A DNA stretch of 64,000 bases from Legionella cherrii (lineage in GTDB: Bacteria; Pseudomonadota; Gammaproteobacteria; Legionellales; Legionellaceae). The stretch's first letter is position 1, and every line of letters begins with the position of its first letter. The stretch spans positions 1,830,001 to 1,894,000 of the forward strand of contig NZ_LR134173.1 in NCBI RefSeq assembly GCF_900635815.1, in the 5' to 3' direction. This document shows, in pieces, positions 38,452 through 63,926 of the stretch. The position numbers and the translations under genes are program-made. The notes under the pieces were generated by a model. The model worked only from the letters and a program-made list of their open reading frames with translations, was not told where the DNA came from and made no database searches.

Positions 38452-39047
38452 ACAATGTCAACCTAAATGAATTAACTCTGGAAAATGTCGGACAATGGCC
38501 ATTGGTGGTCAAAATCTGTGTTCTTTTGGGTGTTAGTTTTCTAATTATTGCTTTAGGATATTGGTTGATCATTCAAGATAATTTCACTCAGTACAGTAAA
38601 TTGGAGGGGCAAGAAGCCACTTTAAAAACAGATTTTCAAAACAAGCAACGGCAATTATATAATTTACCTGCCTTTCGTGAACAACTGCAGATTATGAAAG
38701 AGCGTTTTGTGCTAATGCTCAAGCAGCTTCCTGAAAAAAATGAGATGCCTGGCTTGTTGGAAGAAATTTCTAAAACAGGGGTGGCCTCAGGATTAAGGTT
38801 TGAGTTATTTGCCCCACAACCAGAAGTAATGCATGATTTTTATGTTGAATTACCTATAAAAATTTCAGTTGTAGGAACTTATTTTCAATTGGCTATGTTT
38901 ATAAGTCGAGTGGCTGAAATGAATCGAATTGTAACGTTACATGATTTTACTATTGAAAGGGTGTCTTCCAAGGATCATAAAACAGTCTCGGAAGATGAGT
39001 TGGTAATGAGCATTACTGCCAAAATATATCGATATCGCACACAATGA
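38448..39047 (+). CDS. pilO: Type IV pilus assembly protein PilO
   Basis: PilO pairs with PilN in the periplasm. The 199-residue protein has a short cytoplasmic tail, one membrane helix (about 23-43, VKICVLLGVSFLIIALGYWL) and a coiled coil. The C-terminal domain has the typical pattern ELPIKISVVGTYFQLAMFISRVAEMNRIVTLHDF. It overlaps pilN and pilP at ATGA-type junctions, so translation is coupled. Confidence 0.95.
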   Translation: MNNVNLNELTLENVGQWPLVVKICVLLGVSFLIIALGYWLIIQDNFTQYSKLEGQEATLKTDFQNKQRQLYNLPAFREQLQIMKERFVLMLKQLPEKNEMPGLLEEISKTGVASGLRFELFAPQPEVMHDFYVELPIKISVVGTYFQLAMFISRVAEMNRIVTLHDFTIERVSSKDHKTVSEDELVMSITAKIYRYRTQ

Positions 39048-39574
39048 TGAGCCGAAGACAAAGGATTGGTTATATACCCAGAATAATGGGGTTTATTTGC
39101 TCCATATTTCTGGTTGCTTGCTCCAGTGACAATGATGATCTGAGGCGATACATCAATGAAGTGAAACACAGAAAAACACGGGAGGTAGCACCAATTCCTA
39201 CATTTTCACCTTTACCGACTTTTAAATTCCCTGATAATGGTGACAGACGTAATCCATTTAAGCCCATAACTCAAAAAAAAGAACAAGTTGATTTAAATGC
39301 CCCAGATAAAAATAGACGTAAAGAGCCTTTGGAAGCTTATCCATTGGATGCCTTGAAATTTGTAGGAACTTTAAGACAGGGAAATGAATTGTGGGCATTG
39401 ATTAAATTACCGAGCTCAGATATTACTCATGTTCGAATTGGTAATTATATAGGGCAGAATTATGGTCGTATTGTGTCGATTAAAAATGATTCAATTCAAT
39501 TAATAGAAACAACACAAACCTCAGGAAAGTGGGAGAAACGTAGAACCACGATTGAATTATATACCGGGAAGTAG
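39044..39574 (+). CDS. pilP: Type IV pilus lipoprotein PilP
   Basis: PilP is an inner-membrane lipoprotein that connects the PilNO complex to the PilQ secretin. The 176-residue protein has a signal with lipobox FLVACSS. An unstructured Pro-rich linker (TFSPLPTFKFPD) follows, then a beta-sandwich domain with RRNPFKP and YPLDALKFVGTLRQGNELWALIK. The second Met of the MM start is equally possible. pilQ follows after 8 bp. Confidence 0.95.
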   Translation: MMSRRQRIGYIPRIMGFICSIFLVACSSDNDDLRRYINEVKHRKTREVAPIPTFSPLPTFKFPDNGDRRNPFKPITQKKEQVDLNAPDKNRRKEPLEAYPLDALKFVGTLRQGNELWALIKLPSSDITHVRIGNYIGQNYGRIVSIKNDSIQLIETTQTSGKWEKRRTTIELYTGK

Positions 39575-39582
39575 GAGCAAAA

Positions 39583-41688
39583 GTGCGGAGAATAACTGCT
39601 TTATTCATTTTTATTGGCATGAGCTTATGTATGATGGCTTTTGCCCAAAATAATCCTCTTGAATCGGTAAAGGTAGTTCCTTTGCCTGAGGAAAAGTTGC
39701 GTTTGGATTTCCAATTTGCGAAACCTCTTAAGCAAGAACCTGCAAGTTTTGTGACGCAAAAACCGGCACGTATCGTTCTAGATTTCATTGATTCCAACCT
39801 GCAATTACCTCCAGAGCAGAGGACGAAAGAAATTAAATTAGGTTCACTAAATACCTATACTATTGTGGCCGTGGGGTCGCGTGTTCGAGCTATATTGGAT
39901 TTAAATTTCCCTGTACCTTATTCCGGTACAATTTCTGGAAAAGTTTATACACTGATTTTGAATGGCAAAAGCAACGAGTTATTTCAACCTCCTAAAGAAA
40001 TTTTAATCACCAATAAACCGGTCAAGACAAGTTATGAAATCAATCATTTTGACTTTCGTGGGATTGAGAGACAAGGCGGCCGTGCAATAGTCAATGTTTC
40101 CAATAGCAGTGTTCCAATTGAGGTAGAGGAACATGGTAAAGAAATTCTAGTAAAATTTTTAAATACAAATATTCCACAGAATCTAAGGAAACGTTTTGAT
40201 GTTTCCGATTTCCGCAGCCCAGTCCAACTAGTTGCTTTTCAGCAAGCCGGTAAAAACGCGCACATGATTTTGTCTAACAAGGGTAATTTTGGTCAATATG
40301 TTTATCAAATTAATAAACAATTCATGATTGATGTCTTTCCCTTAACTCAAGAAGAAGCGCAACAGGCTAAATTGAAAAAGAAGGTATTTTCTGGAAGAAG
40401 AATTTCTTTGAATTTTCAGAATATCAGCATACGCGCTGTTTTACAGTTATTGGCTGATTTTACCGGAATTAATATTGTCGTAAGCGATAAAGTTCAGGGA
40501 AATATCACTCTAAGATTAAATAACATTCCCTGGGATCAGGCTTTAGATATTATTTTAACTACGCAAGGACTCGCTAAGCGTCAGACAGGTAATGTGATGT
40601 TGATCGATTATAAAGCTTCTTTTGATAAAATGGAGGCAGAAGAGCTTAAAAGTCAGCATATTATTCAGAAACTTGAACCGGTGCGTTCCGAACTGATTCA
40701 GATTAATTATGCAAAAGCTACTGATCTTGCGATTTTAATTAAAGACAAACAAAATTCACTTCTATCTGAAAAGGGTAAAATAAGTGTTGATACACGAACA
40801 AATACCATTTGGATTCAAGACAGCGGAACCAAAATCGATGAAGTCAGGGATTTGATAAAACAGTTGGATGTACCGGTTAAACAAGTACTTATTGAGGCAC
40901 GTATTGTCGAAGTCACTAAAGATTTTGCGCAAGACTTGGGAATACGTTGGGGTGTTTCCAAACCACCTCATTTAAGTGGTACTTTAGCTGGGGCGAACCA
41001 ACTGGAGCAGGGGGTTGCTCCTGCAAATGTCGTACCGTTTACAGACCGATTAAACTTGGATTTGGTTGCTGCTCCTGTGACAGGAGCAGTCCCTGCCTCC
41101 GTTGGTATTGCATTGGCTCAGCTTGGCGATAATATTTTACTTGATCTTGAGTTATCAGCTTTGGAAAGTGAAGGGCTTGCTGAATTGATATCCAGTCCGA
41201 GACTTATTACTGCGAATCAACAGCCTGCAGTAATTGATTCAGGACAGGAGATACCTTATCAGGAAGCCACTTCAAGTGGTGCGACTGCTGTAGCGTTCAA
41301 AAAAGCGGTATTAAGTTTAAAGGTTACTCCGCAAATTACTCCTGATAGTAAAATACTTATGGAGTTAAAAATTAATCAGGATACGGCCTCACCCCAATTA
41401 TTTAACGGTGTGCCTGCTATTTTGACTAAGGAAATTCAGACTAATGTCCTTGTTAGTAATGGACAGACTATAGTTCTAGGGGGAATCTATCAGCAAGACA
41501 AGAGTAAAACGATAACCAGAGTACCTTTTTTTGGTCAGTTGCCTGTAGTCGGAAATTTATTTAAAAATACCCAAATTGCTCTTAAAAACGATGAATTACT
41601 TATTTTTATTACACCAAAAATAATAACCAATTCATTATCGATTACGACAATTGAAGGCAGAAAACCGATTCGTTTTGATGAAAAATAA
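39583..41688 (+). CDS. pilQ: Type IV pilus secretin PilQ
   Basis: PilQ forms the outer-membrane pore for the pilus. The 701-residue protein starts at GTG, with GTAGGAG just upstream and a signal peptide (RRITALFIFIGMSLCMMAFA). AMIN domains come first (about 25-250). An N0/STN domain follows (ISLNFQNISIRAVLQLLADFTGINIVVSD), then the N1 domain. The secretin core has VLIEARIVEVTKDFAQDLGIRWG, LELSALESEGLAELISSPRLITA and VLVSNGQTIVLGGIYQ. No C-terminal pilotin tail is obvious. Confidence 0.97.
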   Translation: MRRITALFIFIGMSLCMMAFAQNNPLESVKVVPLPEEKLRLDFQFAKPLKQEPASFVTQKPARIVLDFIDSNLQLPPEQRTKEIKLGSLNTYTIVAVGSRVRAILDLNFPVPYSGTISGKVYTLILNGKSNELFQPPKEILITNKPVKTSYEINHFDFRGIERQGGRAIVNVSNSSVPIEVEEHGKEILVKFLNTNIPQNLRKRFDVSDFRSPVQLVAFQQAGKNAHMILSNKGNFGQYVYQINKQFMIDVFPLTQEEAQQAKLKKKVFSGRRISLNFQNISIRAVLQLLADFTGINIVVSDKVQGNITLRLNNIPWDQALDIILTTQGLAKRQTGNVMLIDYKASFDKMEAEELKSQHIIQKLEPVRSELIQINYAKATDLAILIKDKQNSLLSEKGKISVDTRTNTIWIQDSGTKIDEVRDLIKQLDVPVKQVLIEARIVEVTKDFAQDLGIRWGVSKPPHLSGTLAGANQLEQGVAPANVVPFTDRLNLDLVAAPVTGAVPASVGIALAQLGDNILLDLELSALESEGLAELISSPRLITANQQPAVIDSGQEIPYQEATSSGATAVAFKKAVLSLKVTPQITPDSKILMELKINQDTASPQLFNGVPAILTKEIQTNVLVSNGQTIVLGGIYQQDKSKTITRVPFFGQLPVVGNLFKNTQIALKNDELLIFITPKIITNSLSITTIEGRKPIRFDEK

Positions 41689-42375
41689 AGTTGATTAGCA
41701 CAGCGTTAATGAGCGCGTTTTGTTGCGTTTATGGGCGATTTAGAATGAATGTTTTGAGTTGCACCAGGTTTTTCATTCAACATAAACAAATTGAGGCTGG
41801 GTTGTCTAGCCCAGCATTTGTTAAACAATTGTTGCTCTAAGAACTAATTTGTAAATGTGATGTAACGCGGGGCTGAATAAACCAGCTTAAACTGGTTTTA
41901 TGCTGGAGACTAACGGCGTGCAACGGCGCAGTCTCATGAACGCGAACTGTGCATGCTCCACTTTGCGGATTAAATTTTGAGCAGAATGTGTGCTGTTTTA
42001 GTTCGATGTTATAGATTAGCTGAGACCATGTTTTTTCCAGCTCAGTTCAGGGGCAGGCTTATATTCACGTAAAAAGGGTTCAGATTATAGGTTTTTTCCA
42101 ATTTAAATTAGTTTTATGATGTACTTACTCCATAAAAGTACACCAAGAAGTGATATAATATAAATGATTCAGAGTAAATAGTTATAAAATATGCTCATTT
42201 GTTGTAGAATAATGAGCGGGAATTTCTAACTGCGAAAAATACAGTTAGGATTGAGCCCCAAATATCCCCCACTTTGGCCACTGATCGTATTTTTAGTTTC
42301 ATGCTAAAATGGGAAGTTATTTCGGACTCGATCTTTAATTAATGACATTTCAGTTAAAGAGGTATGTAATAAAAA
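41689..42375 (+). promoter_or_regulatory. Long structured leader and promoter region upstream of aroK
   Basis: This 687 bp gap has no ORF that I can support. It contains an AAACCAG/CTGGTTT hairpin (41879-41898) after pilQ and GAGACT/AGTCTC with an inner GGCG/CGCC-type stem near 41905-41933. A candidate extended -10 promoter TGATATAAT lies at 42151-42159. Two perfect 7-bp hairpins then follow in the presumed leader: GCTCATT/AATGAGC (42193-42217) and CTAACTG/CAGTTAG (42226-42248). A regulatory leader or a small RNA is possible. The promoter has no good -35, so it is tentative. Confidence 0.4.
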
Positions 42376-42903
42376 ATGAGCATAGTTAAAGTACGAAATA
42401 TTTTTCTCATCGGACCCATGGGTGCAGGTAAAAGCACTATAGGTCGTGCTTTGGCAAAGGAGCTCAAGTTAGAATTTTTTGATTCAGATGAAGTGATTGA
42501 AGAACGTGCTGGTGCTGATATTTCTTGGATATTTGATATTGAGGGTGAAGAGGGATTCAGACGCCGTGAACAGAAAGTTATTGAAGAATTAACTCAAAAG
42601 ACCAACATTGTTTTGGCAACTGGTGGTGGAGTTGTAATCACTCCTGAAAACAGAAATGCATTAGCAGGGCGTGGAACCGTAATTTATCTTAAAACCTCAT
42701 TACAACAACAGTTCGAAAGAACTAAGCGCGATACAAAACGACCTTTGCTACAGACGAATGATCTTGAAGGAAGATTGGAATTATTGAGAGACGAGCGCGA
42801 GCCATTCTATAATGAATTAGCTGATGTTAGTTTTGAAACAGATAAATTAACAGTCAAAGCAGTTGCAAATAATATAATAAAATATATTTATGGCGAACTT
42901 TGA
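42376..42903 (+). CDS. aroK: Shikimate kinase AroK
   Basis: AroK phosphorylates shikimate at the 3-OH in chorismate synthesis. The 175-residue protein has the Walker A loop GPMGAGKS (13-20). It also has the shikimate-binding [32 protein letters not shown], the ATGGGVV loop and the lid KRDTKRPLL. aroB begins 14 bp before its stop codon. The pair follows pilQ in the order conserved in Pseudomonas. Confidence 0.97.
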
Positions 42904-43993
42904 GGTTTATGAGCACGTTGATGTTTCTTTAAGTGAGCATCAATATTCTATCATTATTTGTCGCAATGGTTTGCAAAACCTAGATTTTCTGCGAACCATC
43001 GTTACGTCTTCACAGATTCTAATTGTTACTAACCAAACGATAGCTCCTTTCTATTTAAAGCAGGTGCAGACTGCTTTTGCGAATATTCAGTGTGATGTGT
43101 TGATTTTAAAAGATGGAGAGCAATATAAAAATCAGCAAACTTTATTTTCTATCTACGATGCCTTAATCCAACACAAACATCATAGAGACACAACACTGAT
43201 CGCTTTAGGTGGAGGGGTAATTGGTGATATCACTGGATTTGCAGCATCAACTTACCAACGCGGGGTAAAATTTGTTCAAATCCCTACTACTTTACTAGCC
43301 CAGATTGATGCTTCTATTGGCGGAAAAACTGGAATTAATCATGCCTTGGGTAAAAATATGATTGGTAGTTTTTATCAACCTCAAGCAGTGATTATTGATT
43401 TGGCTACATTAAACACACTTCCTGAAAGAGAGTTTCGTGCGGGCTTAGCAGAAATGATCAAATATGCTCTACTTGCTGGTGGTGATTTCTTCCAATTTTT
43501 AAGTGAAACCCTTGAGCAGGGGCTAACGGCTGAAAGCCCACAGCTACCTCAATTAATTGCTGAGTGTTGCCGTATTAAAGCCCAATTTGTTGAAGTTGAT
43601 GAACGAGAAGCAGGACAGCGAGCCTTACTGAACCTTGGTCATACTTTTGCACACGCATTGGAAACTTATACGCAGTATAAACAATGGCTGCATGGTGAAG
43701 CGGTGGCAATCGGTTTATATTGTGCCACAGTTTTGTCGCATGAAATGCATTTAGTTGATAAACAATTGGTGGAGCAAGTTGAGCGAATTCTGCATCAAGC
43801 ACATTTACCCCATAAAATTCCAAGTTCAGTAGACTTGAAAAAACTCATCGAATTAATGCAATCAGATAAAAAAATTAAAAATAACTGCTTAAGGTTTGTG
43901 GTACTTAAAAAACCTGGTGATTGTTATCTTGAATCTGGAATCACTGAGGATTGTTTGTATAATGCACTTGTTGCAGCTGTAAGAGGAGAATAA
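42890..43993 (+). CDS. aroB: 3-dehydroquinate synthase AroB
   Basis: AroB converts DAHP to 3-dehydroquinate with NAD and a metal ion. The 367-residue protein contains [22 protein letters not shown] and [19 protein letters not shown]. Further on are [12 protein letters not shown] and the metal-ligand segments [11 protein letters not shown] and [10 protein letters not shown]. The start overlaps the aroK end by 14 bases, which couples translation. Confidence 0.97.
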
Positions 43994-43995
43994 AA

Positions 43996-45435
43996 ATGAA
44001 AGAGGGAATGATTCAGTCTGATGTAGCGGCTGTAATTCAACCAAGAGTATTGTTTAAACCAGGGTCTTGGCTCGCTAAGATTGACTTCATTAATCATTTG
44101 GTTCTTTTTAACAATGTGCTCATTACAGTTTTATCTGAGAAAGAGGGCGGTAAAACTTCTTTTAATACTTTGTTGCAAAGTAATTTAGATCAACAAATTA
44201 AATCAGTATCTATGACGGTTAAGGCGCCTTGCAATAGAGAAAGTATAATTCGGGAGATTGCAACTCAGCTGCATCTTAATCATGATGAACATACAGACAT
44301 TAGTGCATTAGTAGCTCAAATTAATGAGCGTAAAGCTCATGTCTTGCTCTTAATTGATGATGCACAACATTTACCAGAGGCTTTAATTAAAGAAGCAATG
44401 TTGGCGATCAAGAACCAGGAGAATTTTAGTTTTTTCCATCTTTGCCTTATATCGGATTATTCAATCGTAGCAACGCTGAACAATTTAGTCGCTTCGTTTT
44501 TTGAAAACTTAGTACATACCATAGAATTGGGTTCATTGAATGAAAGTGAAACAAGAACCTATGTTTTACAACGTGCTATGGCGGCACATTTGATAAGTAA
44601 ACCATTAACTGATGCTCAGTTTAAGCAATTTTATCAGTTGACCAAAGGTAATGTAGCAAAAATAAACAACAATCTCGAAGCATTTGTCTTTAAATGTGCG
44701 ACACAAAAGAAAAAAGAACCACTGAAATGGGTAAAAAAAGCAAGTGTCGCAGTGAGCGTAGCTTTAATTGCAGGGTTTGTGGGTTTTTACTTTGCTCAAA
44801 ACTACGATCTTTCGTCATTAGACAACTTGAGCAAGGGAAGTGCCGTGACGCAGGAAGCACAGCCTGAAGTGTTGGTCAGTCGAATTGCTTCTTGGCAGGA
44901 TTCCTCAATTCGACAATTGGTATATGCCTCTTTACCCAAAAAACAAGATTTAGATGAATTTAGCGATGAAACACCCAATGAAACAGTGGCAATTGTGGAT
45001 AAGGTGGTTGTGATTCCTAAATTGCAAATAAATAATCCAACAGAGCCAGAAGCAAGAGTTCCCGAATCTGAATTTAAACGTGAGAGCCCTGAATCAGATC
45101 TCACGCGCGAATCAAAAATAGTTGAGATTCCAACAGCAAAACAAAATAAAATAGAACCATCTCAAGCTCCCAGTTCGAAAAATAATACGAATCTGTATAC
45201 GATACAAGTTGCTGCCAGCCACAATAAATCAGACATTGAACGTTTTCAGCAGAACAATAAATTATTTGCCCAAGATGTCAAAATAAGACACTTTACGAAT
45301 GCAAAAGGCATTTGGTACATACTGACTGTAGGTGAGTATACAAGCAGGGTTGAAGCACAGCGCAGTATCAGCAAGTTGCCAACAAAGTTAACTAAATTAA
45401 AACCTTGGGTTCGACCTGTATCCAATCTTGGCTAA
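43996..45435 (+). CDS. damX: DamX-like SPOR-domain protein with ExeA-type ATPase domain
   Basis: DamX-like proteins bind denuded glycan at the division septum through the SPOR domain. The 479-residue protein starts with an ExeA-like AAA region, with a P-loop near 46-54 (SEKEGGKTS) and LLIDDAQHLP near 117. One membrane helix (about 252-268) precedes a Pro/Glu-rich linker. The C-terminal SPOR domain (about 400-475) has LYTIQVAASHNKSDIERF and GIWYILTVGEY. It starts 2 bp after aroB, as in many gamma-proteobacteria. Confidence 0.9.
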   Translation: MKEGMIQSDVAAVIQPRVLFKPGSWLAKIDFINHLVLFNNVLITVLSEKEGGKTSFNTLLQSNLDQQIKSVSMTVKAPCNRESIIREIATQLHLNHDEHTDISALVAQINERKAHVLLLIDDAQHLPEALIKEAMLAIKNQENFSFFHLCLISDYSIVATLNNLVASFFENLVHTIELGSLNESETRTYVLQRAMAAHLISKPLTDAQFKQFYQLTKGNVAKINNNLEAFVFKCATQKKKEPLKWVKKASVAVSVALIAGFVGFYFAQNYDLSSLDNLSKGSAVTQEAQPEVLVSRIASWQDSSIRQLVYASLPKKQDLDEFSDETPNETVAIVDKVVVIPKLQINNPTEPEARVPESEFKRESPESDLTRESKIVEIPTAKQNKIEPSQAPSSKNNTNLYTIQVAASHNKSDIERFQQNNKLFAQDVKIRHFTNAKGIWYILTVGEYTSRVEAQRSISKLPTKLTKLKPWVRPVSNLG

Positions 45436-46731: not shown

Positions 46732-48375
46732 ATGACGGACAGGGTACAAAAACAACAAAAAGCTTTTTTGATGTGGCGAGATATTGATGGCTGGAACTAT
46801 TATTTTTTGGTGAAATTCGCACTTTTGTGGGCTGGATATTTAAACTTTCATCCCTTTATTAATTTAGTTTTTTTAGCTTTTTTACTTTTTCCTTTGTCCT
46901 CAAATTTTCTTCATCGCTGTCGTAACTGGATCGCCATTCCACTAGGTTTTGTGGTGTTTTATCATGATACCTGGCTGCCTGGAATAAGTACCATTACTAG
47001 CCAAGGCACTAATCTTTTTGCATTTAGCTCTGGCTATCTTCTTGAGTTAGTCAATCGATTTCTTAATTGGGAACTCATAGGTATGGCTTTTGTAATATTA
47101 GTGGCATATCTGTTTCTTTCGCAATGGATTCGAATAACCACCTTTACAGTGATTGCACTCACTTGGTTAAACATCATCACACTAATGGGGCCGTCTATTA
47201 ATCTTCTACCCGTACAAAATAAAATGGTTGCAAATAATCAACAAACTAAGGTGGAGACTAATTCAAGTGCAATCGAGCCGAACAGTAATTTGCCGCCAAC
47301 TAATGAGAATCTTAATGCTTATCTGAATCAGTTTTATGAACAGCAAAAAGGTTTGCGAACTATTTTTCCCAGCGCTCTTTCGGCTGATGCACAGCCTTTT
47401 GATATCCTATTTATTCAAATTTGTTCGCTTGCCTGGGCAGATATCGATGCGTCACATTTAAGAAATCATCCCATATGGAGCAAATTTGATATTTTGTTTA
47501 ATGATTTCAATTCAGCCGCATCATACAGTGGTCCTGCAGCGATTCGTTTATTACGAGCCAGCTGCGGCCAAACACCCCATACTGATCTTTATAAGCCCGT
47601 ACCTCCTTATTGTTATATTTTGGATAACCTGGCTAAACTTGGATTTTCTCCGGAGTTTATGCTTGACCACGAGGGATTATTTGGCGATTTTATCGGCGAG
47701 ATTAAAAAATATGGTGGCTTAGATGATGTATCGATGCTACCGAGATCAGGTATTTCTCCTGATCTCGTTTCATTTGATGGAAAATTGCTTTCAGATGATG
47801 GGCAGTTACTCGAACGCTGGCTTAAACAAAGAGATACGTCAGAACAAAAACGCAGTGTTACTTATTACAATGAAATTTCGCTCCATGATGGCAATACTTA
47901 TATTGGCAATAATACACCTGCACCTTATGCACCGCGTGCACAAAAACTTTTAGATCAAACAATGAACTTCTTCACTGCATTAGAGAAAGCTGGACGTAAA
48001 GCCGTTGTTGTTTTTATTCCTGAACATGGAGCTAATCTTGTTGGTGATAAATTGCAAATGCCAGGCTTACGTGATATCCCCAGCCCGAGTATTACCCACA
48101 TTCCTGTTGGAATTAAATTTATTGGTTTGAAAGCAAAGCCTGCCCCAATACAAATAAATGAACCCAGTAGCTATTTAGCTGTTTCAGAGTTAATGGCTCG
48201 CTTGGTTGATGGAAAGTTATTTAATCAGGATCATGTTAATTTAGAAACAATAACTAAAAATTTACCCCAAACAGCCTTTGTTTCATCGAATGATGGGGTT
48301 ACGGTAATGAAATATCAAGGTAAATTTTATATTTTATTAAAAGGTGACAGCAATTGGGTGCCTTATCCTGAGTGA
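46732..48375 (+). CDS. bcsG: Cellulose phosphoethanolamine transferase BcsG
   Basis: BcsG is an inner-membrane enzyme that moves phosphoethanolamine from phosphatidylethanolamine onto cellulose. The 547-residue protein has about four or five N-terminal membrane helices (to about 155). A periplasmic alkaline-phosphatase-like domain follows. Residues match those known in E. coli BcsG at a constant offset of 11-12: Cys231 (QICSLAW), Tyr265 and Ser266 in SYSGPAAIRLLRASCGQ, and Glu431-His432 in IPEHGANLVGD. It therefore looks catalytically complete. It lies away from bcsAB, next to bcsC in convergent orientation. No bcsE or bcsF is visible beside it. Confidence 0.92.
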   Translation: MTDRVQKQQKAFLMWRDIDGWNYYFLVKFALLWAGYLNFHPFINLVFLAFLLFPLSSNFLHRCRNWIAIPLGFVVFYHDTWLPGISTITSQGTNLFAFSSGYLLELVNRFLNWELIGMAFVILVAYLFLSQWIRITTFTVIALTWLNIITLMGPSINLLPVQNKMVANNQQTKVETNSSAIEPNSNLPPTNENLNAYLNQFYEQQKGLRTIFPSALSADAQPFDILFIQICSLAWADIDASHLRNHPIWSKFDILFNDFNSAASYSGPAAIRLLRASCGQTPHTDLYKPVPPYCYILDNLAKLGFSPEFMLDHEGLFGDFIGEIKKYGGLDDVSMLPRSGISPDLVSFDGKLLSDDGQLLERWLKQRDTSEQKRSVTYYNEISLHDGNTYIGNNTPAPYAPRAQKLLDQTMNFFTALEKAGRKAVVVFIPEHGANLVGDKLQMPGLRDIPSPSITHIPVGIKFIGLKAKPAPIQINEPSSYLAVSELMARLVDGKLFNQDHVNLETITKNLPQTAFVSSNDGVTVMKYQGKFYILLKGDSNWVPYPE

Positions 48376-48477: not shown

Positions 48478-51400
48478 TTATCTGAAATTAGAATAGGGTA
48501 CTAAGGGGATGATAGGCATGTCCATATCCCCCATCCATCCTTCAAATGAGTAACGAAGGAACAGAGAGAGATGGCTCGGAGTATAGTCTGTTGAGCGTTG
48601 AATATCTACCATTCCTCCGACTATAAAATGTGAACCAAGTCGACGTTCTATCAATGCAAGAAAAGAATAACCATAGCCCGTACCATTACCACCTGTTTGG
48701 ATGGAGTTTTGTGAACTGTTAAAATTTGGAATAAGGTTTGGTAATGGGTATGCCAATAGATTTTTAGTAGTATCATACGACCATGTTACAGTGCCACCCA
48801 ATTCATAAGACCAGTTTGCTGTTCGTTTGCGGTAATCAATTGGAATGGTGAACGACAGGTAGAAATCTGGGCTAAAATATCCTGCTTGCCCAAGATTAAA
48901 ACCGTATAGGTTTTTATCATAGTGCCAAACCATATTATTGAGTCCAATGATAAAACGGCGATTGTCTTCATTGATGAGTTTGTAATAATAACCGTCGATA
49001 AGCAGAATGCGCTGATTCGACGGTACATTTTTCCCAGTTAATTCACTGCCAATGATATTAGCCCACAAACCGTTTGCTTCACCCCGATCATAACTTAGTG
49101 ATAAGGTAAGTCCTGTTGCTACAACTCCTCCCCATACGACTCCTGTATTTGGATCTTTTGCACCTGCAAAAGAGAGTAACGAGTTAGTCATGGGGCGTTG
49201 TGACGCTGTGATTGTCCAGCCAATATGATTTATTTCACCGCTGTAATTGATACCACCAATGAAATTATTCACAGGGAATCCTATGGGGGTGGCGCCCACA
49301 TCAAATCCCCAAAGCCGATTTTGCCATCCTCCATCAAAGCTGACTCCGTTTGTTTTTTGCGCTATGCCGGTTGAGCAGCCGTTAATGTTACACGTTCCAA
49401 AGTCGTCAAAATACAAGCCATTAACTGTAGTAAAACTTCCTGCACCCAAACTAACCGTATCCGTTCTAAAAAATGCGCGTCCGTTTGCGTACCCCCAATC
49501 TGCTTGTGCTATAGTATCTTCTGCGCGTAAATCAGAGGTTCCAGCGTTACCTGTTAGCCGCCAGTAATCTTGATCGATTGTAATGCGTGTTTCTTGTTGT
49601 TGATAAAGAAGGCCTGCATCAGACCTAATGCTGCGTTTAAGCCAATCGTCTCCTGCTTGATTGCGGGTCAATAAAGTATAATAATCATTGCTGGCAGGCC
49701 AAACCGATGTAATATCACTTTCAACCATCGCTTTTTTGTAATCTTCTTGCGCCAGTTTAGGCATACGAAGTTCGGTTTCTAAACGTGCCGCATCACGAAA
49801 TATAAGGGCGCTATCTTGACTGGGAGCCGCATTGACATTTTCTTGTTTCAGCCGATTAAAAATGGGTAATGCTTTTTGTGGATAGCCTACAGCATTCCAT
49901 GCATTTGCTAATCTTCTTTGCATATTATAATTGTACGTTAATTTTATTTTTTGCTGTTCTTCCAGCAATTGATGCGCTTTTTTCTTGTTTCCCATAGCAA
50001 TAAGCGATTCAATAACCCCCAAGTTGGCATCAGTATTAAGTGGTTCATGGGTTTTGACGTCTTGATAATAATTCAGGGCTGCTGCAAATACCCCGTCATT
50101 AAAAGCCCAATCAGCTAAGGTGAGTTTGATGGGTGTAGTTTGGGTTTGATGCATTAAATAGGCGATTGCAGCTTGTTTATCTCCAGCATCTCGCAATTTT
50201 TGTGCATGTTTTAAAATCAATTCGGTAGTCAGACGTTGTGCCATTTGACGCATGCCTTCATTCCATTGTTTTTGCGGAATGGTATGAAGTTGGTCCAGTG
50301 CTTGTTGTAGCTTGTCTATACTTGATAAGTAAAGCGCATAAGCGTATGCTCCAGTTGGGTCTTTTTTTTGTTTCGAGAGCAACTTCTGAAAGAGCTCATT
50401 TGCTTTTTTAAATTTACCTACATGATTCAATGCTAATGCGAAGTGATAAGTTAACCATACATCGTTGGGATCCAGGTTTTCTGCCTGGCTGTATTTTTCG
50501 ATTGCTCTTTCCCATTGGTTTTTTCTGACAAATTGGTCGGCTTGCTCTTGTAGCATGGAACTTTCTAAACTGCGTCGCGCATCATTAAATTTAATTTTCA
50601 AATCCTCAGGTAAACTATTGAGGTAATCCAGTGCTTTCTTCAAGGATTGAAGTTTATAGATTCCTATAAGTCCATAAACGGCGCTACTTTTACCAGGACT
50701 AACGAGCAAAGCTTGTTTGTATGCTTTTTCAGCATCAACAAAGTTTTTGCGCGCAAATGCTACTTCACCTATTCCAACCCAGGCATAATAATTTGTGTGA
50801 TCCAGGAGGATGGCCTGCTGATATTTTTTTTGCGCCAAATCCATATTACCCGTTCGAAATGCAGCATCTCCACTGGCCACCCATAATCCTGAAAGCCTTT
50901 CTTTGAGTCCATAAGTCCAATTATCTTGATTGTTATTGTTAGAATAAATTTTATGAAGATTTAAAAAATTATAGAGCGTTTGCAAATGGTTGAATGCATT
51001 TTGACGCTCTGTAGGAATGTAGGAAACGAGGCGCCAATATTCAGAACTTAATTCCAGGGTGGGGAAATCACCATGGAAAAGCGCATCATATTGAGCTTTT
51101 GCTGAATCCAGATGTCCAGACAGCGCCATTATTCTTGCTTGCTGGAGTTTTTGTTTGGCTAAAGGCTGAGTGAGAAATAAACTCATAATAGCCTGTTTGT
51201 AAGCTTCTGAATTAGGTGCTTTTTGTTTTAATTCATCAAGCAATTCTTTCGCTAAAACCAAATTTTTTTGTCTTATTGCAAGCCTAATTCGTGCAGCAAG
51301 AACATCGGGATCATCAGGAGCGATTAATTGTAATCGCTCGAGTGAATTCTTAACAAAATCATCGCGGTAATAGGTTTCGCCCCAAATGACCTGATCTAAT

Positions 51401-51486
51401 AACATTTGTTTCGGGTTAAAATCGTCAGCAACAGCTTTAAAAGCTATCAAGCTAAACAATAATAAACCGAATCTGCCTCTAGACAT
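48478..51486 (-). CDS. bcsC: Cellulose synthase export subunit BcsC (TPR and outer-membrane barrel)
   Basis: BcsC carries the polymer through the periplasm and outer membrane. I set the start at ATG 51484-51486, which overlaps the pgi stop as TAATG. The 1002-residue protein then opens with a signal peptide (SRGRFGLLLFSLIAFKAVADD). Many TPR units follow from about 30 to 620, for example AWVGIGEVAFARKNFVDAEKAYKQAL. A C-terminal beta-barrel of about 340 residues ends DMPIIPLVPYSNFR. It is somewhat shorter than E. coli BcsC, with fewer TPRs. Gene order bcsC after pgi suggests joint expression. Confidence 0.92.
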   Translation of the reverse strand: MSRGRFGLLLFSLIAFKAVADDFNPKQMLLDQVIWGETYYRDDFVKNSLERLQLIAPDDPDVLAARIRLAIRQKNLVLAKELLDELKQKAPNSEAYKQAIMSLFLTQPLAKQKLQQARIMALSGHLDSAKAQYDALFHGDFPTLELSSEYWRLVSYIPTERQNAFNHLQTLYNFLNLHKIYSNNNNQDNWTYGLKERLSGLWVASGDAAFRTGNMDLAQKKYQQAILLDHTNYYAWVGIGEVAFARKNFVDAEKAYKQALLVSPGKSSAVYGLIGIYKLQSLKKALDYLNSLPEDLKIKFNDARRSLESSMLQEQADQFVRKNQWERAIEKYSQAENLDPNDVWLTYHFALALNHVGKFKKANELFQKLLSKQKKDPTGAYAYALYLSSIDKLQQALDQLHTIPQKQWNEGMRQMAQRLTTELILKHAQKLRDAGDKQAAIAYLMHQTQTTPIKLTLADWAFNDGVFAAALNYYQDVKTHEPLNTDANLGVIESLIAMGNKKKAHQLLEEQQKIKLTYNYNMQRRLANAWNAVGYPQKALPIFNRLKQENVNAAPSQDSALIFRDAARLETELRMPKLAQEDYKKAMVESDITSVWPASNDYYTLLTRNQAGDDWLKRSIRSDAGLLYQQQETRITIDQDYWRLTGNAGTSDLRAEDTIAQADWGYANGRAFFRTDTVSLGAGSFTTVNGLYFDDFGTCNINGCSTGIAQKTNGVSFDGGWQNRLWGFDVGATPIGFPVNNFIGGINYSGEINHIGWTITASQRPMTNSLLSFAGAKDPNTGVVWGGVVATGLTLSLSYDRGEANGLWANIIGSELTGKNVPSNQRILLIDGYYYKLINEDNRRFIIGLNNMVWHYDKNLYGFNLGQAGYFSPDFYLSFTIPIDYRKRTANWSYELGGTVTWSYDTTKNLLAYPLPNLIPNFNSSQNSIQTGGNGTGYGYSFLALIERRLGSHFIVGGMVDIQRSTDYTPSHLSLFLRYSFEGWMGDMDMPIIPLVPYSNFR

Positions 51487-52937
51487 TAGGTAATCCAATT
51501 ATTTTGTCGAATTATTTCTTTAGAACTCTCAACCCCAGGCTGATCAAATGAGTTAATATTCCAAATCACACCTTGGACAAAAATTTTATGCTCGTATAAA
51601 GCAATCAATGAGCCAAGAGTTCTTGGCGAGCAATCGTTCAAGCAGAGAAGATTTACGGGTATTTCCCCAGCAATATAACTGTGAGGATTCTCGCTATGAT
51701 TTCCACCTTTTGTTAAAACTTCCTTGTGGGCACGACATATTTTATTGATTACATCGTCATCAAAACTACGAAGACAAATTAAATCAGCTGCAATTTTATG
51801 AGTTCCTTGGCATAACAGCTGATAGTAACTGTGTTGCGCGTGATTACCTAGTCCCCCCCAGATAATGGGGCCTGTTGCATAATCTACTCTTCGGCCTTGT
51901 TTGTTTATGGACTTTCCATTACTTTCCATGTCCAGTTGCTGAAGATAAGGAACAAAGTGTTGTAAATCCTGGGAATAAGTCATAACCAGCAAATTATTAA
52001 TGTTTAAAAAATTAATATTCCATATACCTAATAGTGCCATGAGAACCGGTAGGTTTTTTTCAAAATGTTCCGTGCAAAAATGCACATCCATGTTGTATGC
52101 CCCGTTAAGGATTTCTGAAAAATTATCAAAACCAACGGCAATGCAGGAAATTAAATTAATCGCTGAGCAGAAAGAGTAACGCCCTCCAACCCAATCCCAG
52201 ATGGGGAGAATCGTTTCAAAACCCATTTCTTGCGCTTTTTTAACCTGTGACGTGATTGCAATAAAATGCTGATTAAAATATTGATCCTGGTTAATCCACG
52301 ACAAAGCCTTTTGGAAATGAGATAAGGTTTCTGGAGTGGTAAACGATTTCGAGGAAATAATAAATAAAGTAGTCTCAGGATTGAGTTTCGCCGTAGCGCG
52401 TGAAAATGCATTCGGGTCAATATCGGAGATAAAATGAAAGCCTAATGTGTCAGTGACGTAATCGCTTAATGCATTAATACAAAAGAAAGGGCCAAGCATA
52501 GAACCACCAATCCCTATATTAACGATATCAGTAATAGGCTTTCCAGAATAACCCAGCCATTCTCCGTTTCTAATTTTTTCGGAGATATCCTTCATTGTAT
52601 TACGAACCTTCACTACATCAGGAATAACGTTATGTTCATTAACCCATATGGCTTTATTTTCTGGGGCACGAAGAGCTGTATGTAAGACTGGCCTATTTTC
52701 TGTGTTGTTAATCGATTTTCCACTCATCATGGCATTAATATGTTCATGCAGATTACATTCATTGGCAAGCTCAAGAAGTGAATCCATAATCTGGGAATTA
52801 ACATGTTGCCCGCCGTAATCCAGGGTAATATTGTCATTTGATATAGAATAATTTTTTATTTCTGGAGTATGACGAACGAATGTTTTGGCAAATTTTTCGA
52901 GTTTTTTCCAGGTATTCATTTTTGTAAGGTGTTCCAT
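51486..52937 (-). CDS. pgi: Glucose-6-phosphate isomerase Pgi
   Basis: Pgi interconverts fructose-6-phosphate and glucose-6-phosphate. The 483-residue version from ATG 52935-52937 has GAGAA nine bases upstream; a TTG start 15 bases earlier is in frame but less likely. Landmarks are IGIGGSMLGPFF, the ISSKSFTTPET phosphate loop, GGRYSFCSAI and the catalytic His in NPHSYIAGE or GLGNHAQHSYYQLL. The length is shorter than E. coli Pgi. It overlaps bcsC by one base, which implies that its product feeds sugar to the cellulose pathway. Some deviations at the C-terminus (VESSKEI) are within family range. Confidence 0.93.
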   Translation of the reverse strand: MEHLTKMNTWKKLEKFAKTFVRHTPEIKNYSISNDNITLDYGGQHVNSQIMDSLLELANECNLHEHINAMMSGKSINNTENRPVLHTALRAPENKAIWVNEHNVIPDVVKVRNTMKDISEKIRNGEWLGYSGKPITDIVNIGIGGSMLGPFFCINALSDYVTDTLGFHFISDIDPNAFSRATAKLNPETTLFIISSKSFTTPETLSHFQKALSWINQDQYFNQHFIAITSQVKKAQEMGFETILPIWDWVGGRYSFCSAINLISCIAVGFDNFSEILNGAYNMDVHFCTEHFEKNLPVLMALLGIWNINFLNINNLLVMTYSQDLQHFVPYLQQLDMESNGKSINKQGRRVDYATGPIIWGGLGNHAQHSYYQLLCQGTHKIAADLICLRSFDDDVINKICRAHKEVLTKGGNHSENPHSYIAGEIPVNLLCLNDCSPRTLGSLIALYEHKIFVQGVIWNINSFDQPGVESSKEIIRQNNWIT

Positions 52938-52952
52938 ATATATAGTTCTCAA

Positions 52953-53104: not shown

Positions 53105-53992
53105 CTAGGCTAAAAGCCATTTGGAAAATTTTTCTCCCTCAGTTGGATGCTCTTTTCCTAAAGCTACATTAGCTTTTAGAAAACCGAGAACGCTCCCGCA
53201 GTCGTAGCGTTTTCCATCATAGGGTAGAGCCAATACGGTTTCTTTTTTTAGCAAACCATTAATTGCATCAGTCAATTGAATTTCTTTATGCTCCACATGA
53301 GGTAATTTTCTGATTTGTTCAAAAATACCTGGGGTAAGAACATAACGACCTACAATGGCAATATTTGATGCAGCAAGATGCGGTTTAGGTTTTTCTTCTA
53401 AATGATGAATACTTAAAAGGTTCTTATCCCACTCTGCACCTTGAATAATACCATAACATTCTGTTAATTCCTGAGGGATACTTTCTACCGCAACAATACT
53501 ATGACCATATTGCTCATACATGTTCGTTAATTGTTGAATCACTGGCGTAGTGCTCGACATTAAATCATCGGCAAGAATGACAGCAAATGCTTCATTGCAA
53601 ACGATTTTTTCAACACATAAAACCGCATGTCCTAATCCAAGAGGTTTTGCCTGGCGTACATAAAAACATTCCATGTCAGGAGGTGTAACTGATTGTACAA
53701 TGGATAATAATTCATTTTTATCATGGAGGCGCAGTTCATTCTCCAATTGATAAGCTAAATCAAAATGATCTTCAATAGCACGTTTGTTATGGCAGGTTAC
53801 GAAAATCATTTGTCGAATGCCTGCTGCATAAGCCTCTTCAACCGCATATTGAATCAATGGTTTATTAACTACAGTGAGCATTTCTTTGGGGGCTGTTTTT
53901 GTAGCCGGTAAAAATCGAGTGCCTAAACCGGCAACGGGAAATACTGCTTTACGTATTGGTGGAAAGGTTGCATTCATTGTTAATCTATCCAT
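53105..53992 (-). CDS. galU: UTP-glucose-1-phosphate uridylyltransferase GalU
   Basis: GalU makes UDP-glucose, the direct substrate of cellulose synthase. The 295-residue protein has the nucleotidyltransferase opening KAVFPVAGLGTRFLPATKTAPKEML. VILADDLM, FVRQAKPLGLGHAV-type sequence and EKPKPHLAASNIAIVGRYVLTP follow, and YDCGSVLGFLKANVAL comes near the end. A start at the second Met (53977) is possible. It lies upstream of pgi and bcsC on the same strand. It is transcribed away from truD. Confidence 0.96.
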   Translation of the reverse strand: MDRLTMNATFPPIRKAVFPVAGLGTRFLPATKTAPKEMLTVVNKPLIQYAVEEAYAAGIRQMIFVTCHNKRAIEDHFDLAYQLENELRLHDKNELLSIVQSVTPPDMECFYVRQAKPLGLGHAVLCVEKIVCNEAFAVILADDLMSSTTPVIQQLTNMYEQYGHSIVAVESIPQELTECYGIIQGAEWDKNLLSIHHLEEKPKPHLAASNIAIVGRYVLTPGIFEQIRKLPHVEHKEIQLTDAINGLLKKETVLALPYDGKRYDCGSVLGFLKANVALGKEHPTEGEKFSKWLLA

Positions 53993-58115: not shown

Positions 58116-58307
58116 ATGAAGAATCAGATATCAGATCTTCATGGACTGAAATCTGTTAGGCTTCAGGATGATTTGCTCGTACTGAGTCGAATATATTCTT
58201 TACCTCAGTTAGGTTATGTAGATATTTCAAAGCAAGAAATTATTACGGAAATAATAGAACGTTGGTTTATATTAAAAGAATTTAGTGACATCAGCTCAAA
58301 AAAATAA
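58116..58307 (+). CDS. bcsR: Cellulose biosynthesis regulator BcsR
   Basis: BcsR is a small cytoplasmic protein that pairs with BcsQ and is needed for cellulose secretion. The 63-residue protein matches the E. coli BcsR pattern, from memory: LQDDLLVLSRIYSLPQLGYVDIS, then EIITEIIERWFILKEF. Position 14 bp upstream of bcsQ supports the call. It is the first gene of the bcsRQAB run. The ribosome site is weak (GAAGG). Confidence 0.85.
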   Translation: MKNQISDLHGLKSVRLQDDLLVLSRIYSLPQLGYVDISKQEIITEIIERWFILKEFSDISSKK

Positions 58308-58321
58308 TATAGGACAAAAGC

Positions 58322-61626: not shown

Positions 61627-61658
61627 GCATGGGTTATTGGAATAAAATATAAAAACTA

Positions 61659-63926
61659 ATGGATGAGATAATGATAAGAAAAATAATCTGGATTGCTTTA
61701 CTGATCATGGCGGGGGCTAGTATTTCTTCGCAAGCTGCTTCTGCGGCATCAGCAAATTCCATGCAAGCGGCGCAGCCCATATTATCAACTACCGCCAACA
61801 CTCCAACACGTACAATCCATTTATATTTTAATAATTTAAATCAGCAACAAGGCAACTTTACTTTAGGTAATTTTACTACTGGAAAAAATATAGAATTTAC
61901 GGTGCGTAAGGATGAGCTGATATCTCAAGCGGTATTACATCTGCAGTTTATTCCTTCGCCGGCGCTTATTCCGTTATTATCGCAACTCAAAATATATTTA
62001 AATGATGAGTTAGTCAATGTTATTGCAATTAGTGACGAACAACTGGGTAAATTAAATTCTGTGGATATCCCTATAGATCCTCGTTATGTCAGTGATTTCA
62101 ATCGCCTGAGACTGGAGTTTATTGGCCACTACAAATCAATTTGTGAGAATCCAGCACACAGCTCAATATGGTTAGATATTGATAAACTCAGCTCTCTTGA
62201 ATTGACCTATCAAACATTACTCGTGAAAAATGATCTATCCCATTTTCCAGAACCTTTCTTTGATCCATTAGATAGTAATCCATTAAATCTTCCTATCGTG
62301 TTTACTAACCAACCCAGCTTGATGCAACAACGAGCCGCAGCAATTTTAAGCTCATGGTTCGGCAGTAAGGCCTTATGGCGTGGAGCCTCTTTTCCTGTCT
62401 TATTGAATCAACTCCCTACAAGGAATGCTGTAGTATTATTCACAAACCAACAAAGACCTGATTTCTTGAAAGACTATAAGACTGTAAATGCGCCTACCGT
62501 CGAAATGATAAGTCATCCCAATAATCCTTATATCAAATTACTGTTGATTTCTGGGCGTGATGAACGCGATTTATTGACTGCTATTCAGGGTCTAGTGCAA
62601 GGTAACGTGCTTTTTAGAGGAGCTCGTGTTACGGTTGATAACGTAAAAATGCTAGAACATCGACAGCCTTATGACGCACCCAACTGGATTCCTACGAATA
62701 AACCAGTAACTTTTGCCAAATTAGAGGAATTTGAAGGACAATTGCAAACAAAAGGATTTACCCCTTATCCAGTTTCACTTCGATTTAATGTGCCTCCTGA
62801 TTTGTTTGTTAATCAAGGCAGAGGCATTAATTTAAGTTTAAAGTACCGTTACTCAATTCCCCCAGCTGCCAGCATGTCACAATTGAATATTGGCTTGAAT
62901 GGTTCTTTTGTGAAAAGTTATCAGTTGGAGTCGCATCAGGAACATCCTTTTGCTGATAATATGGCTGAAACAAGTCAAACACTCTATATTCCAGCACATT
63001 TAGGAGCACACAACCAATTCACTTTTGATTTTGCATATGGGACTCAAATTGCTGGAGGAATGCAAAATGATCAATGCATTACCTATCAGGTTGTTAACAA
63101 TTCAGGGCTTATTGATCGTTCTTCCACTTTGAATTTATCTAATTATTCTCATTTCATCACGATGCCTAATTTAAATGCTTTTATGAGTTCAGGCTATCCT
63201 TTCAGTATCCTGGCTGATCTCTCGCAAACAATAGTATACATTGATCCGCAATCACAGCCTGAAGCTCTAAGTACCTTATTAAATGTTATGGGCAATATTG
63301 GTGCAGCAACAGGTTATCCTGTTCTATCGATGACTTTGACAGATGATTGGTCTCAGGTTCAAAATAAAGATGCAGATCTTTTAATTATCGGGTCTTTACC
63401 CAAAGAGCTTAAAAATAATGAAGATCTCAATTTGTTGATCAATAAAACACAGGATTGGATTAAAAAACCTCTAAATAACAATACGATGCCTGATATACAT
63501 CGCGAGACTCCTTTCAGCATTGCTGAGAGTAAAACTACGATTACTGCCATGGGTTCTTTGGCAGCAATTCTCGGCATTCAATCTCCCTTTAACAATAAGC
63601 GCAGTATTATTATTCTATTGGCAGAAAATCAGCAGGGCTTTGAATTACTCAATAATGCACTATCTAACAATAAAAATGTTGATAAAGTCTTTGGTTCGCT
63701 CGCTGTAATTCGTAATTCTGGAATTGATAGTTTCAGAGTAGGCAAGATCTACCATCTCGGTTATTTACCATGGGTGGAGCGTTTTTGGTTATCATTGCAA
63801 AAACATCCTATCAATTTGGCGCTTTTGTCTCTTTTAGCTGCGATAGTAGTGACCTTTTTGATTTGGAATGGTTTAGCAGTTATTAATCGTCGTCGATTAA
63901 AAGGTAGTCAACAGGATAAAGCGTGA
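61659..63926 (+). CDS. bcsB: Cellulose synthase periplasmic subunit BcsB
   Basis: BcsB sits in the periplasm with a C-terminal membrane anchor and completes the BcsA channel. The 755-residue protein has a signal peptide (IIWIALLIMAGASISSQAAS). Alternating carbohydrate-binding-like and flavodoxin-like domains follow. The C-terminal helix is at about 722-744 (INLALLSLLAAIVVTFLIW), with a basic end. A start at the fifth codon (MIRKI) is equally possible. It follows bcsA by 32 bp. The next gene overlaps its stop as GTGA. Confidence 0.94.
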   Translation: MDEIMIRKIIWIALLIMAGASISSQAASAASANSMQAAQPILSTTANTPTRTIHLYFNNLNQQQGNFTLGNFTTGKNIEFTVRKDELISQAVLHLQFIPSPALIPLLSQLKIYLNDELVNVIAISDEQLGKLNSVDIPIDPRYVSDFNRLRLEFIGHYKSICENPAHSSIWLDIDKLSSLELTYQTLLVKNDLSHFPEPFFDPLDSNPLNLPIVFTNQPSLMQQRAAAILSSWFGSKALWRGASFPVLLNQLPTRNAVVLFTNQQRPDFLKDYKTVNAPTVEMISHPNNPYIKLLLISGRDERDLLTAIQGLVQGNVLFRGARVTVDNVKMLEHRQPYDAPNWIPTNKPVTFAKLEEFEGQLQTKGFTPYPVSLRFNVPPDLFVNQGRGINLSLKYRYSIPPAASMSQLNIGLNGSFVKSYQLESHQEHPFADNMAETSQTLYIPAHLGAHNQFTFDFAYGTQIAGGMQNDQCITYQVVNNSGLIDRSSTLNLSNYSHFITMPNLNAFMSSGYPFSILADLSQTIVYIDPQSQPEALSTLLNVMGNIGAATGYPVLSMTLTDDWSQVQNKDADLLIIGSLPKELKNNEDLNLLINKTQDWIKKPLNNNTMPDIHRETPFSIAESKTTITAMGSLAAILGIQSPFNNKRSIIILLAENQQGFELLNNALSNNKNVDKVFGSLAVIRNSGIDSFRVGKIYHLGYLPWVERFWLSLQKHPINLALLSLLAAIVVTFLIWNGLAVINRRRLKGSQQDKA

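What the first reader, a model, noticed from the sequence alone, without database searches (positions are those of the whole stretch)
46732..48375. Complete cellulose phosphoethanolamine transferase in a Legionella-like genome
All catalytic positions known from E. coli BcsG (Cys, Tyr-Ser, Glu-His) are kept at constant offset. Phosphoethanolamine cellulose has been studied mainly in enteric biofilms. Its presence beside bcsC, without bcsE or bcsF in view, suggests a reduced or altered version of the modification system in an amoeba-associated bacterium.
Basis: partly seen in the sequence, partly recalled or inferred. Interest (0 to 1): 0.7.

Follow-up and report, generated by a model that had tools for sequence, protein, structure and literature searches.

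The report
Cellulose-modifying enzyme with trimmed partner set
This Legionella gene looks like an intact enzyme that attaches phosphoethanolamine to cellulose, in a genome with a full cellulose-making machine that lacks two regulatory parts; related loci in other Legionella were reported in 2014, so it is mostly a known thing with a useful evolutionary twist.

Summary
Observation confirmed: 46732-48375 (+) encodes a complete BcsG, 53% identical to E. coli BcsG, with seven mutation-tested positions kept. bcsE and bcsF are absent genome-wide at curated cut-offs. I add a survey of the 45 genomes held for the genus: BcsG in 20, exactly those with a full BcsB; BcsE and BcsF together in 4; BcsQ missing from 6 of the 20. 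bcsG stays under purifying selection without E/F (dN/dS 0.09-0.15). Fluoribacter gormanii BcsG has lost its zinc ligands. Most likely BcsG is recruited by the BcsA N-terminal domain and works without BcsE/F, although the published BcsE-F-G signalling model says otherwise. The product is unproven.

The parts
46732..48375 (+). bcsG, cellulose phosphoethanolamine transferase, 547 aa
   Evidence: PF11658 684.6 bits, TIGR03368 672 bits; 53.4% identical to E. coli BcsG
47422..47424 (+). codon of C231 (E. coli C243, zinc ligand)
   Evidence: alignment; role from PMC10525099 passages
47524..47529 (+). codons of Y265-S266 (E. coli Y277-S278; S278 nucleophile)
47884..47886 (+). codon of H385 (E. coli H396)
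48022..48027 (+). codons of E431-H432 (E. coli E442-H443, zinc ligands)
48070..48072 (+). codon of R447 (Salmonella R458)
48478..51486 (-). bcsC, outer-membrane export subunit, 1002 aa from ATG at 51486 (the 1006-aa TTG form to 51498 is less likely)
   Evidence: NF008520 1199 bits; TAATG overlap with the pgi stop; 1000-1003 aa in 10 of the 12 other layout-B regions, 1037 in two
51486..52952 (-). pgi, glucose-6-phosphate isomerase (precursor supply)
   Evidence: NF001211 547 bits; only match in this genome at E 1e-30
53105..53992 (-). galU, UTP-glucose-1-phosphate uridylyltransferase (makes UDP-glucose)
   Evidence: TIGR01099 349 bits
58116..58307 (+). bcsR, 63 aa
   Evidence: NF040717 55.4 bits over cut-off 46; PF10945 26.3 bits
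58322..59056 (+). bcsQ, 244 aa
   Evidence: PF06564 283 bits; TIGR03371 238 bits
59056..61626 (+). bcsA, cellulose synthase, 856 aa, with E. coli-type N-terminal domain and PilZ domain
   Evidence: NF008558 1287 bits over 1-853; PilZ 41 bits; 144 of 150 N-terminal positions aligned
61659..63926 (+). bcsB, 755 aa
   Evidence: PF03170 663.5 bits
63923..64000 (+). start of bcsZ (365 aa, GTG start), continuing past the window end to 65020
   Evidence: ORF at L003 6923-8020; 52.9% identical to E. coli BcsZ

Best explanation
The gene encodes a working BcsG: an inner-membrane, zinc-dependent enzyme that takes phosphoethanolamine from phosphatidylethanolamine onto Ser266 and passes it to the C6 hydroxyl of glucose in the cellulose emerging from BcsA-BcsB. 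It belongs to a complete E. coli-type synthase (bcsRQABZ about 10-17 kb downstream, bcsC next door behind pgi and galU). BcsG is held on the synthase by the BcsA N-terminal domain, so modification should not need BcsE or BcsF. The absent BcsE/BcsF pair is the part that in E. coli anchors BcsRQ and adds a second c-di-GMP sensor; here c-di-GMP control would run through the BcsA PilZ domain alone. Shown here: gene content, catalytic positions, the BcsA N-terminal domain, selection, absence of E/F. Inferred from E. coli: recruitment, donor, acceptor, product and regulation.
For: Family scores and residues. Full synthase with N-terminal and PilZ domains in the same window. The 20 of 45 genus genomes with BcsG are exactly the 20 with a BcsB above 600 bits. 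BcsE over the cut-off in 4 of 45 and BcsF in the same 4. dN/dS of bcsG in the window against 12 relatives that all lack E/F is 0.094-0.149, in the range of proC (0.061-0.203), a little above truD (0.070-0.114). In E. coli the BcsA N-terminal domain suffices to bind BcsG (PMC11379886, passages), and BcsE/F have no direct contact with BcsG in the cryo-EM structure (PMC11470070, passages).
Against: Published descriptions have BcsG activated by c-di-GMP through a BcsE-BcsF-BcsG pathway (PMC10525099; PMC8576532) and a BcsF-BcsG interaction in vivo (cited in PMC11379886); on that model BcsG without E/F would be idle or unregulated. In E. coli BcsRQ are not stably retained without BcsEFG or the BcsE N-terminal domain (PMC11470070), so an E/F-less machine may make little polymer. 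BcsR has higher dN/dS than the other genes (0.26-0.66, only 63 aa) and BcsQ is missing in 6 of 20 relatives. In G042 BcsG sits beside a BcsA without the N-terminal domain, which the recruitment model does not explain. No product has been measured.
Confidence: 0.7

Rival explanations
1. BcsG is kept mainly as a structural partner that stabilises BcsA, and pEtN transfer is secondary or already idle.
For: In E. coli BcsG affects BcsA integrity and in some strains is essential for secretion (PMC11470070; PMC5727187). Fluoribacter gormanii keeps a full-length BcsG although three zinc ligands are replaced (C231D, E431N, H432Q), and L. qingyii has E431D, H432Q. If E/F are needed to activate BcsG, catalysis would be idle in all E/F-less genomes.
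Against: In 18 of 19 genus regions examined, window included, all seven positions are kept. In gormanii, where three are lost, bcsG has the highest dN/dS of the ten genes compared with its sister G043 (0.198 against 0.072-0.139), about twice the bcsG value of bozemanae or anisa against G043 (0.097, 0.095). This suggests that catalysis is what selection normally preserves; part of the excess comes from a low dS (0.52), but dN is also raised (0.103 against 0.074 and 0.081).
Confidence: 0.15
2. The bcs genes of this group are a decaying relic: E/F were lost first, then R/Q, and little or no cellulose is made.
For: Graded loss across the genus: E/F missing in 16 of 20 BcsG genomes, Q missing in 6 of 20, bcsG split in G014. 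L. pneumophila was calcofluor-negative in PMC4256840.
Against: In the window every remaining gene (G, C, R, Q, A, B, Z) is an open frame of normal length, and G, C, A, B, Z have dN/dS 0.08-0.19 against relatives, like neighbouring core genes.
Confidence: 0.2
3. Another, unrecognised protein takes the place of BcsE/BcsF in this group.
For: BcsR keeps D21, L25, L31 and Y36, four of the five positions changed in E. coli BcsR mutants (F29 is Y), and residue 14 of BcsQ is G as in E. coli (read against residues named), so BcsRQ still seem to act on BcsA and might need a tether.
Against: In the window there is no extra gene inside bcsRQAB(Z) or between bcsG and bcsC. The 877-aa ankyrin ORF before bcsR also lies beside truD in G042, which has no R/Q. 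I did not search for a replacement genome-wide, nor look into the wider bcsG-bcsC gaps of some relatives.
Confidence: 0.1

Closest known systems
BcsG (YhjU) of E. coli and Salmonella, pEtN transferase of the type II Bcs system
   Same: Full-length match, 53.4% identity to E. coli, all seven mutation-tested positions
   Different: Encoded alone beside proC instead of in bcsEFG; no bcsE or bcsF in the genome
Legionella fallonii bcs genes (PMC4256840; calcofluor-positive)
   Same: Same synthase genes, same order bcsG >< bcsC-pgi-galU ... bcsRQABZ (G019 taken as L. fallonii because its contig length, 4181563, equals that given for P0021)
   Different: L. fallonii has bcsE-bcsF before bcsG, and the pgi beside bcsC is only 57% identical to the window's, with a further copy elsewhere
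L. anisa and L. dumoffii bcs genes, described as lacking bcsE and bcsF (PMC4256840)
   Same: Same gene content statement; the L. anisa locus has the window's layout damX-proC-bcsG><bcsC-pgi-galU-truD-ank-bcsR. L. dumoffii itself was not examined here beyond its BcsG protein
   Different: In the L. anisa genome here only the first 50 and last 25 codons of bcsQ were matched; the window's bcsQ is whole

Membership tests
BcsG (TIGR03368 / PF11658) | Score above the curated equivalog cut-off over the full model | tested here: met
   672 bits against 410; 684.6 bits over 1-516 of 516
BcsG (TIGR03368 / PF11658) | Zinc ligands and nucleophile (C243, S278, E442, H443), plus Y277, H396, R458 | tested here: met
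   All seven kept; roles from PMC10525099
[quoted passage not shown]
   Aligned to E. coli BcsG (9b8v) from residue 11 to the end with few, short gaps, the larger ones in the linker; no separate topology prediction was made
BcsG (TIGR03368 / PF11658) | Transfers phosphoethanolamine to cellulose | not testable with these tools
   Needs chemistry of the polymer
Type II (E. coli-like) Bcs secretion system | BcsA with the ~140-residue N-terminal domain | tested here: met
   NF008558 over residues 1-853; 144 of 150 positions aligned, 42 identical
Type II (E. coli-like) Bcs secretion system | BcsR, BcsQ, BcsB, BcsC and BcsZ | tested here: met
Type II (E. [quoted passage not shown]
   Best match 12.5 bits, cut-off 25; E. 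coli control positive
Type II (E. coli-like) Bcs secretion system | BcsF, membrane anchor of BcsE | tested here: not met
   Best match 20.4 bits across three stops, cut-off 23; E. coli control positive

The most novel reading that the evidence does not exclude
Within one genus the pEtN-cellulose machine has been taken apart step by step: E and F are lost together, then R and Q, and in one genome (G042) the synthase beside bcsG lacks even the N-terminal domain that recruits BcsG; yet BcsG is still there, split in one, in all 20 genomes that have a full BcsB. This would mean that polymer modification is independent of the BcsEF-RQ activation arm, against the BcsE-F-G signalling model, and that F. 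gormanii carries a BcsG whose zinc site is gone and which survives, if at all, as a structural subunit.
Probability: 0.4. Interest if true: 0.55.

Novelty: new member of a known kind. Interest (0 to 1): 0.35.

Why it matters
Phosphoethanolamine cellulose has been shown chemically in E. coli and Salmonella (PMC10525099). A Legionella lineage that keeps BcsG and BcsRQ but has lost BcsE and BcsF separates two questions that are entangled in E. coli: what BcsE/F do for polymer output, and what BcsG needs to modify it. The genus offers natural deletions of E/F, of R/Q and of the BcsG zinc site against an otherwise intact synthase.

Tried and rejected
Rejected: that bcsG stands alone with bcsC (bcsRQAB are in the window). 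Rejected: that a divergent bcsE lies elsewhere in the genome. The weak matches (12.5-21.3 bits in own and related genomes) fall in other open frames, mostly of 1,000-3,800 aa, and cover only about positions 40-204 of the model. Rejected: a bcsF at 1020703-1020819, whose match runs through three stops (sequence looked at). Between proC and bcsG the only small plus-strand ORFs are of 28-51 aa, the 51-aa one overlapping proC, and none gave a BcsF match. Rejected: two bcsG copies in Legionella sp. WA2022007384; P0007 and P0008 are the same protein with different starts. The promoter scan found fewer promoter-like sites than shuffles and was not used. GC of bcsG, C, Q, A, B (0.378-0.403) does not stand out from six neighbours (0.372-0.410), so composition gives no sign of recent import.

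Rows dropped or poor: the first ORF extraction gave nonsense lengths for bcsC in seven genomes; redone, where G014, G019 and G046 gave short frames although one search had given 1020-1021 aa; neither was used for dN/dS. truD of G036 was dropped from the dN/dS table because its match covered 66%. G014, whose bcsG is split, was left out of the tree. G023 was judged from its short contig L020 only. bcsR and bcsZ were not searched genome-wide in relatives, nor a second BcsA in G042.

Not available: PMC4676712 and PMC7020665, which may discuss the phyletic spread of bcsG.

Full report
WHAT IS THERE. The window is bases 1830001-1894000 of a 3,729,541-base single-contig genome. Of 2143 BcsG relatives found (best 120 listed), all named ones from 94% down to 62% identity are Legionella or Fluoribacter; Serratia follows at 58%. 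So the organism is a Legionella in the broad sense. The ORF 46732-48375 (+, ATG, 547 aa) is BcsG: PF11658 684.6 bits over the whole model, TIGR03368 672 bits against a cut-off of 410; all four PDB matches are BcsG chains. It is the only PF11658 match in the genome at E 0.001. Against E. coli BcsG (NC_000913) identity is 291 of 545 aligned positions, and C243, Y277, S278, H396, E442, H443 and R458 are all kept. Substitutions at these positions impaired cellulose or pellicle phenotypes in E. coli or Salmonella (PMC10525099, passages).

THE REST OF THE MACHINE. Downstream of bcsG, tail to tail, lies bcsC (NF008520 1199 bits), then pgi and galU on the same strand. The stop codon of pgi and the start of bcsC overlap as TAATG, so bcsC most likely starts at 51486 (1002 aa); 10 of the 12 other layout-B regions have 1000-1003 aa. 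Further on, after truD and an ankyrin-repeat ORF, the window holds bcsR, bcsQ, bcsA and bcsB at 58116-63926, and bcsZ begins at 63923 and runs past the window. BcsA has the long N-terminal region of E. coli-type synthases (NF008558 over residues 1-853; 144 of 150 N-terminal positions aligned), a PilZ domain (41 bits), and the motifs TED, QRIRW and, in PilZ, RQRRR and NYSDKG (motif patterns recalled). The finding 'beside bcsC' is therefore a view of one end of a complete synthase locus.

BCSE AND BCSF. Neither is in the own genome: BcsE best 12.5 bits (cut-off 25), BcsF best 20.4 bits across stop codons (cut-off 23); of the 14 control genomes E. coli alone is over the cut-off in both.

GENUS SURVEY. 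Among the 45 genomes held for the genus, own included, BcsG is over the cut-off in 20. A BcsB match is found in 24, of which 20 score over 600 bits; these are the same 20. BcsE is over the cut-off in 4 (9 have a match at E 0.001; the other 5 score 18.9-21.3 bits), and BcsF in the same 4 of 45. BcsQ at E 1e-20 is in 14 of 45, all among the 20; it is missing in G013 (L. anisa locus; only the first 50 and last 25 codons were matched), G020 (F. gormanii locus), G023 (an 81% complete genome), G042, G052 (L. steigerwaltii locus) and G054. Names of G handles are inferred from equal coordinates or contig lengths.

THREE LAYOUTS. A, 4 genomes: bcsE-bcsF-bcsG >< bcsC-pgi-galU, bcsRQA, and bcsB and bcsZ where the stretch reaches. 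B, 13 genomes including the window, and G023 as far as its short contig L020 shows: damX-proC-bcsG >< bcsC-pgi-galU-truD-ank-bcsRQABZ, without E/F, and with R/Q missing or broken in three. C, 2 genomes (G042, G054): bcsA, B, C and G near the same core genes without E, F, R, Q, or Z in the fetched stretch. In A the pgi beside bcsC is a more distant gene (57-58% to the window's); G019 and G046 have a further full copy elsewhere, G014 pieces of one, G025 none. The 12 other layout-B genomes fetched have one pgi, 82-96% identical to the window's. So in B the cluster sits around the single pgi of the genome. A plausible but untested account is that the cluster recombined into the core pgi-galU region and left bcsE-bcsF behind; galU was not searched genome-wide.

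TREE. In a maximum-likelihood tree of 36 BcsG proteins the 19 Legionella rows form one group (100/99), and layouts A (3 rows) and B (14 rows) are each one group (100/100, 100/99); the two C rows are unresolved. As the enterobacterial outgroups have bcsEFG, loss of E/F in the genus once or twice is the simplest reading. bcsG without E/F nearby is not confined to Legionella: with profiles seeded from E. coli and the four Legionella, both were found in 45 of the 80 genome-contig loci, BcsE alone in 4, neither in 31, of which 20 are outside Legionella, including two Proteus; several of those contigs are short and the profiles may miss distant forms.

SELECTION. dN/dS of bcsG between the window and 12 layout-B relatives is 0.094-0.149; bcsA 0.078-0.174, bcsB 0.109-0.189, bcsZ 0.107-0.187, bcsQ 0.108-0.183 (9 comparisons), proC 0.061-0.203, truD 0.070-0.114 (11), pgi 0.075-0.102, galU 0.036-0.072; bcsR, only 63 aa, 0.263-0.662 (9). 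bcsG is thus about as constrained as its neighbours in genomes without E/F. Many synonymous distances exceed 1 and are only rough.

ZINC-SITE LOSS. Of 22 BcsG proteins aligned (the nearest), five depart from the window at the zinc ligands: P0013 (F. gormanii) C231D, E431N, H432Q; P0012 (L. qingyii) E431D, H432Q; P0016 (metagenome) H432N; P0023 and P0024 E431D. In the 19 genus regions all seven positions are kept in 18; G020 is the exception. G020 has also lost bcsQ genome-wide and shows no bcsR in the locus. Against its sister G043 its bcsG has dN/dS 0.198, the highest of ten genes (others 0.072-0.139), while bozemanae and anisa against G043 give 0.097 and 0.095; dS is low there (0.52) but dN is raised too (0.103 against 0.074 and 0.081). 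Its branch is 0.18 against 0.054 for G043. This looks like relaxed selection after loss of catalysis.

MECHANISM. In E. coli the BcsA N-terminal domain recruits three BcsG copies and is sufficient for binding. A chimeric synthase carrying it, with BcsG, produced modified cellulose in vitro; BcsF was co-expressed but not found in the purified complex, and a faint product also appeared with the synthase lacking the domain (PMC11379886, passages). BcsF and BcsE recruit BcsRQ and make no direct contact with BcsG in the structure (PMC11470070, passages). BcsQ, BcsR and BcsG were essential for secretion in strain 1094, BcsE needed for maximal output (PMC5727187, passages). Transferred to the window, modification should work without E/F, with polymer output less stimulated. 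This is inference. Against it stand the published view that c-di-GMP reaches BcsG through BcsE and BcsF (PMC10525099; PMC8576532), a BcsF-BcsG interaction in vivo cited in PMC11379886, the need for E/F to keep BcsRQ on the E. coli complex, and G042, where an intact BcsG (TIGR03368 631 bits) stands beside a 704-aa synthase without the N-terminal domain and with a PilZ match just under its cut-off. Another BcsA elsewhere in G042 was not searched for.

PRIOR ART. PMC4256840 (passages) reported calcofluor-positive L. fallonii and the same genes without bcsE and bcsF in L. anisa and L. dumoffii. PMC8528123 (passages) lists a BcsG-like gene interrupted by an insertion sequence in L. antarctica, genome 3.75 Mbp; G014, with a split bcsG and a main contig of 3,750,805 bases, may be that strain. 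I found no passage on phosphoethanolamine cellulose in Legionella in the papers opened; not every hit was opened.

VERDICT. Observation confirmed; interpretation partly supported; the locus is a new member of a known kind. The graded loss across the genus is the part worth keeping.

Noticed in passing
P0013 / L019 (G020), P0012: BcsG of Fluoribacter gormanii (C231D, E431N, H432Q) and L. qingyii (E431D, H432Q) have lost zinc ligands while the nucleophile, H385 and R447 stay.
   Followed up: partly
L169 6012-15749 (G042): An intact BcsG beside an E. coli-like BcsB and BcsC but a 704-aa diverged BcsA without the N-terminal domain and with a weak PilZ match.
   Followed up: partly
L171 (G014): bcsG is split into two pieces about 1.5 kb apart, while bcsE and bcsF are kept; possibly the insertion-sequence case printed for L. 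antarctica.
   Followed up: no
window 51484-51488: pgi stop and bcsC start overlap as TAATG, suggesting coupled translation of precursor supply and export.
   Followed up: partly
G019:C1:3266724-3268469, G046:C66:15013-16791: Two genomes that keep bcsE/F carry a second full-length bcsB at another place.
   Followed up: no
L003 8126-10039 (just past the window, - strand): A 637-aa ORF, not assigned to a family here, lies between bcsZ and a RecQ-like helicase ORF (helicase named by resemblance to the one scanned in G042).
   Followed up: no
window 55311-57944: 877-aa ankyrin-repeat ORF between truD and bcsR, present in all 13 layout-B regions and in G042, with dN/dS 0.16-0.23, higher than the neighbouring truD and galU.
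   Followed up: no
window 37864-45435: pilN-pilO-pilP-secretin genes followed by aroK, aroB and a DamX-like gene.
   Followed up: no
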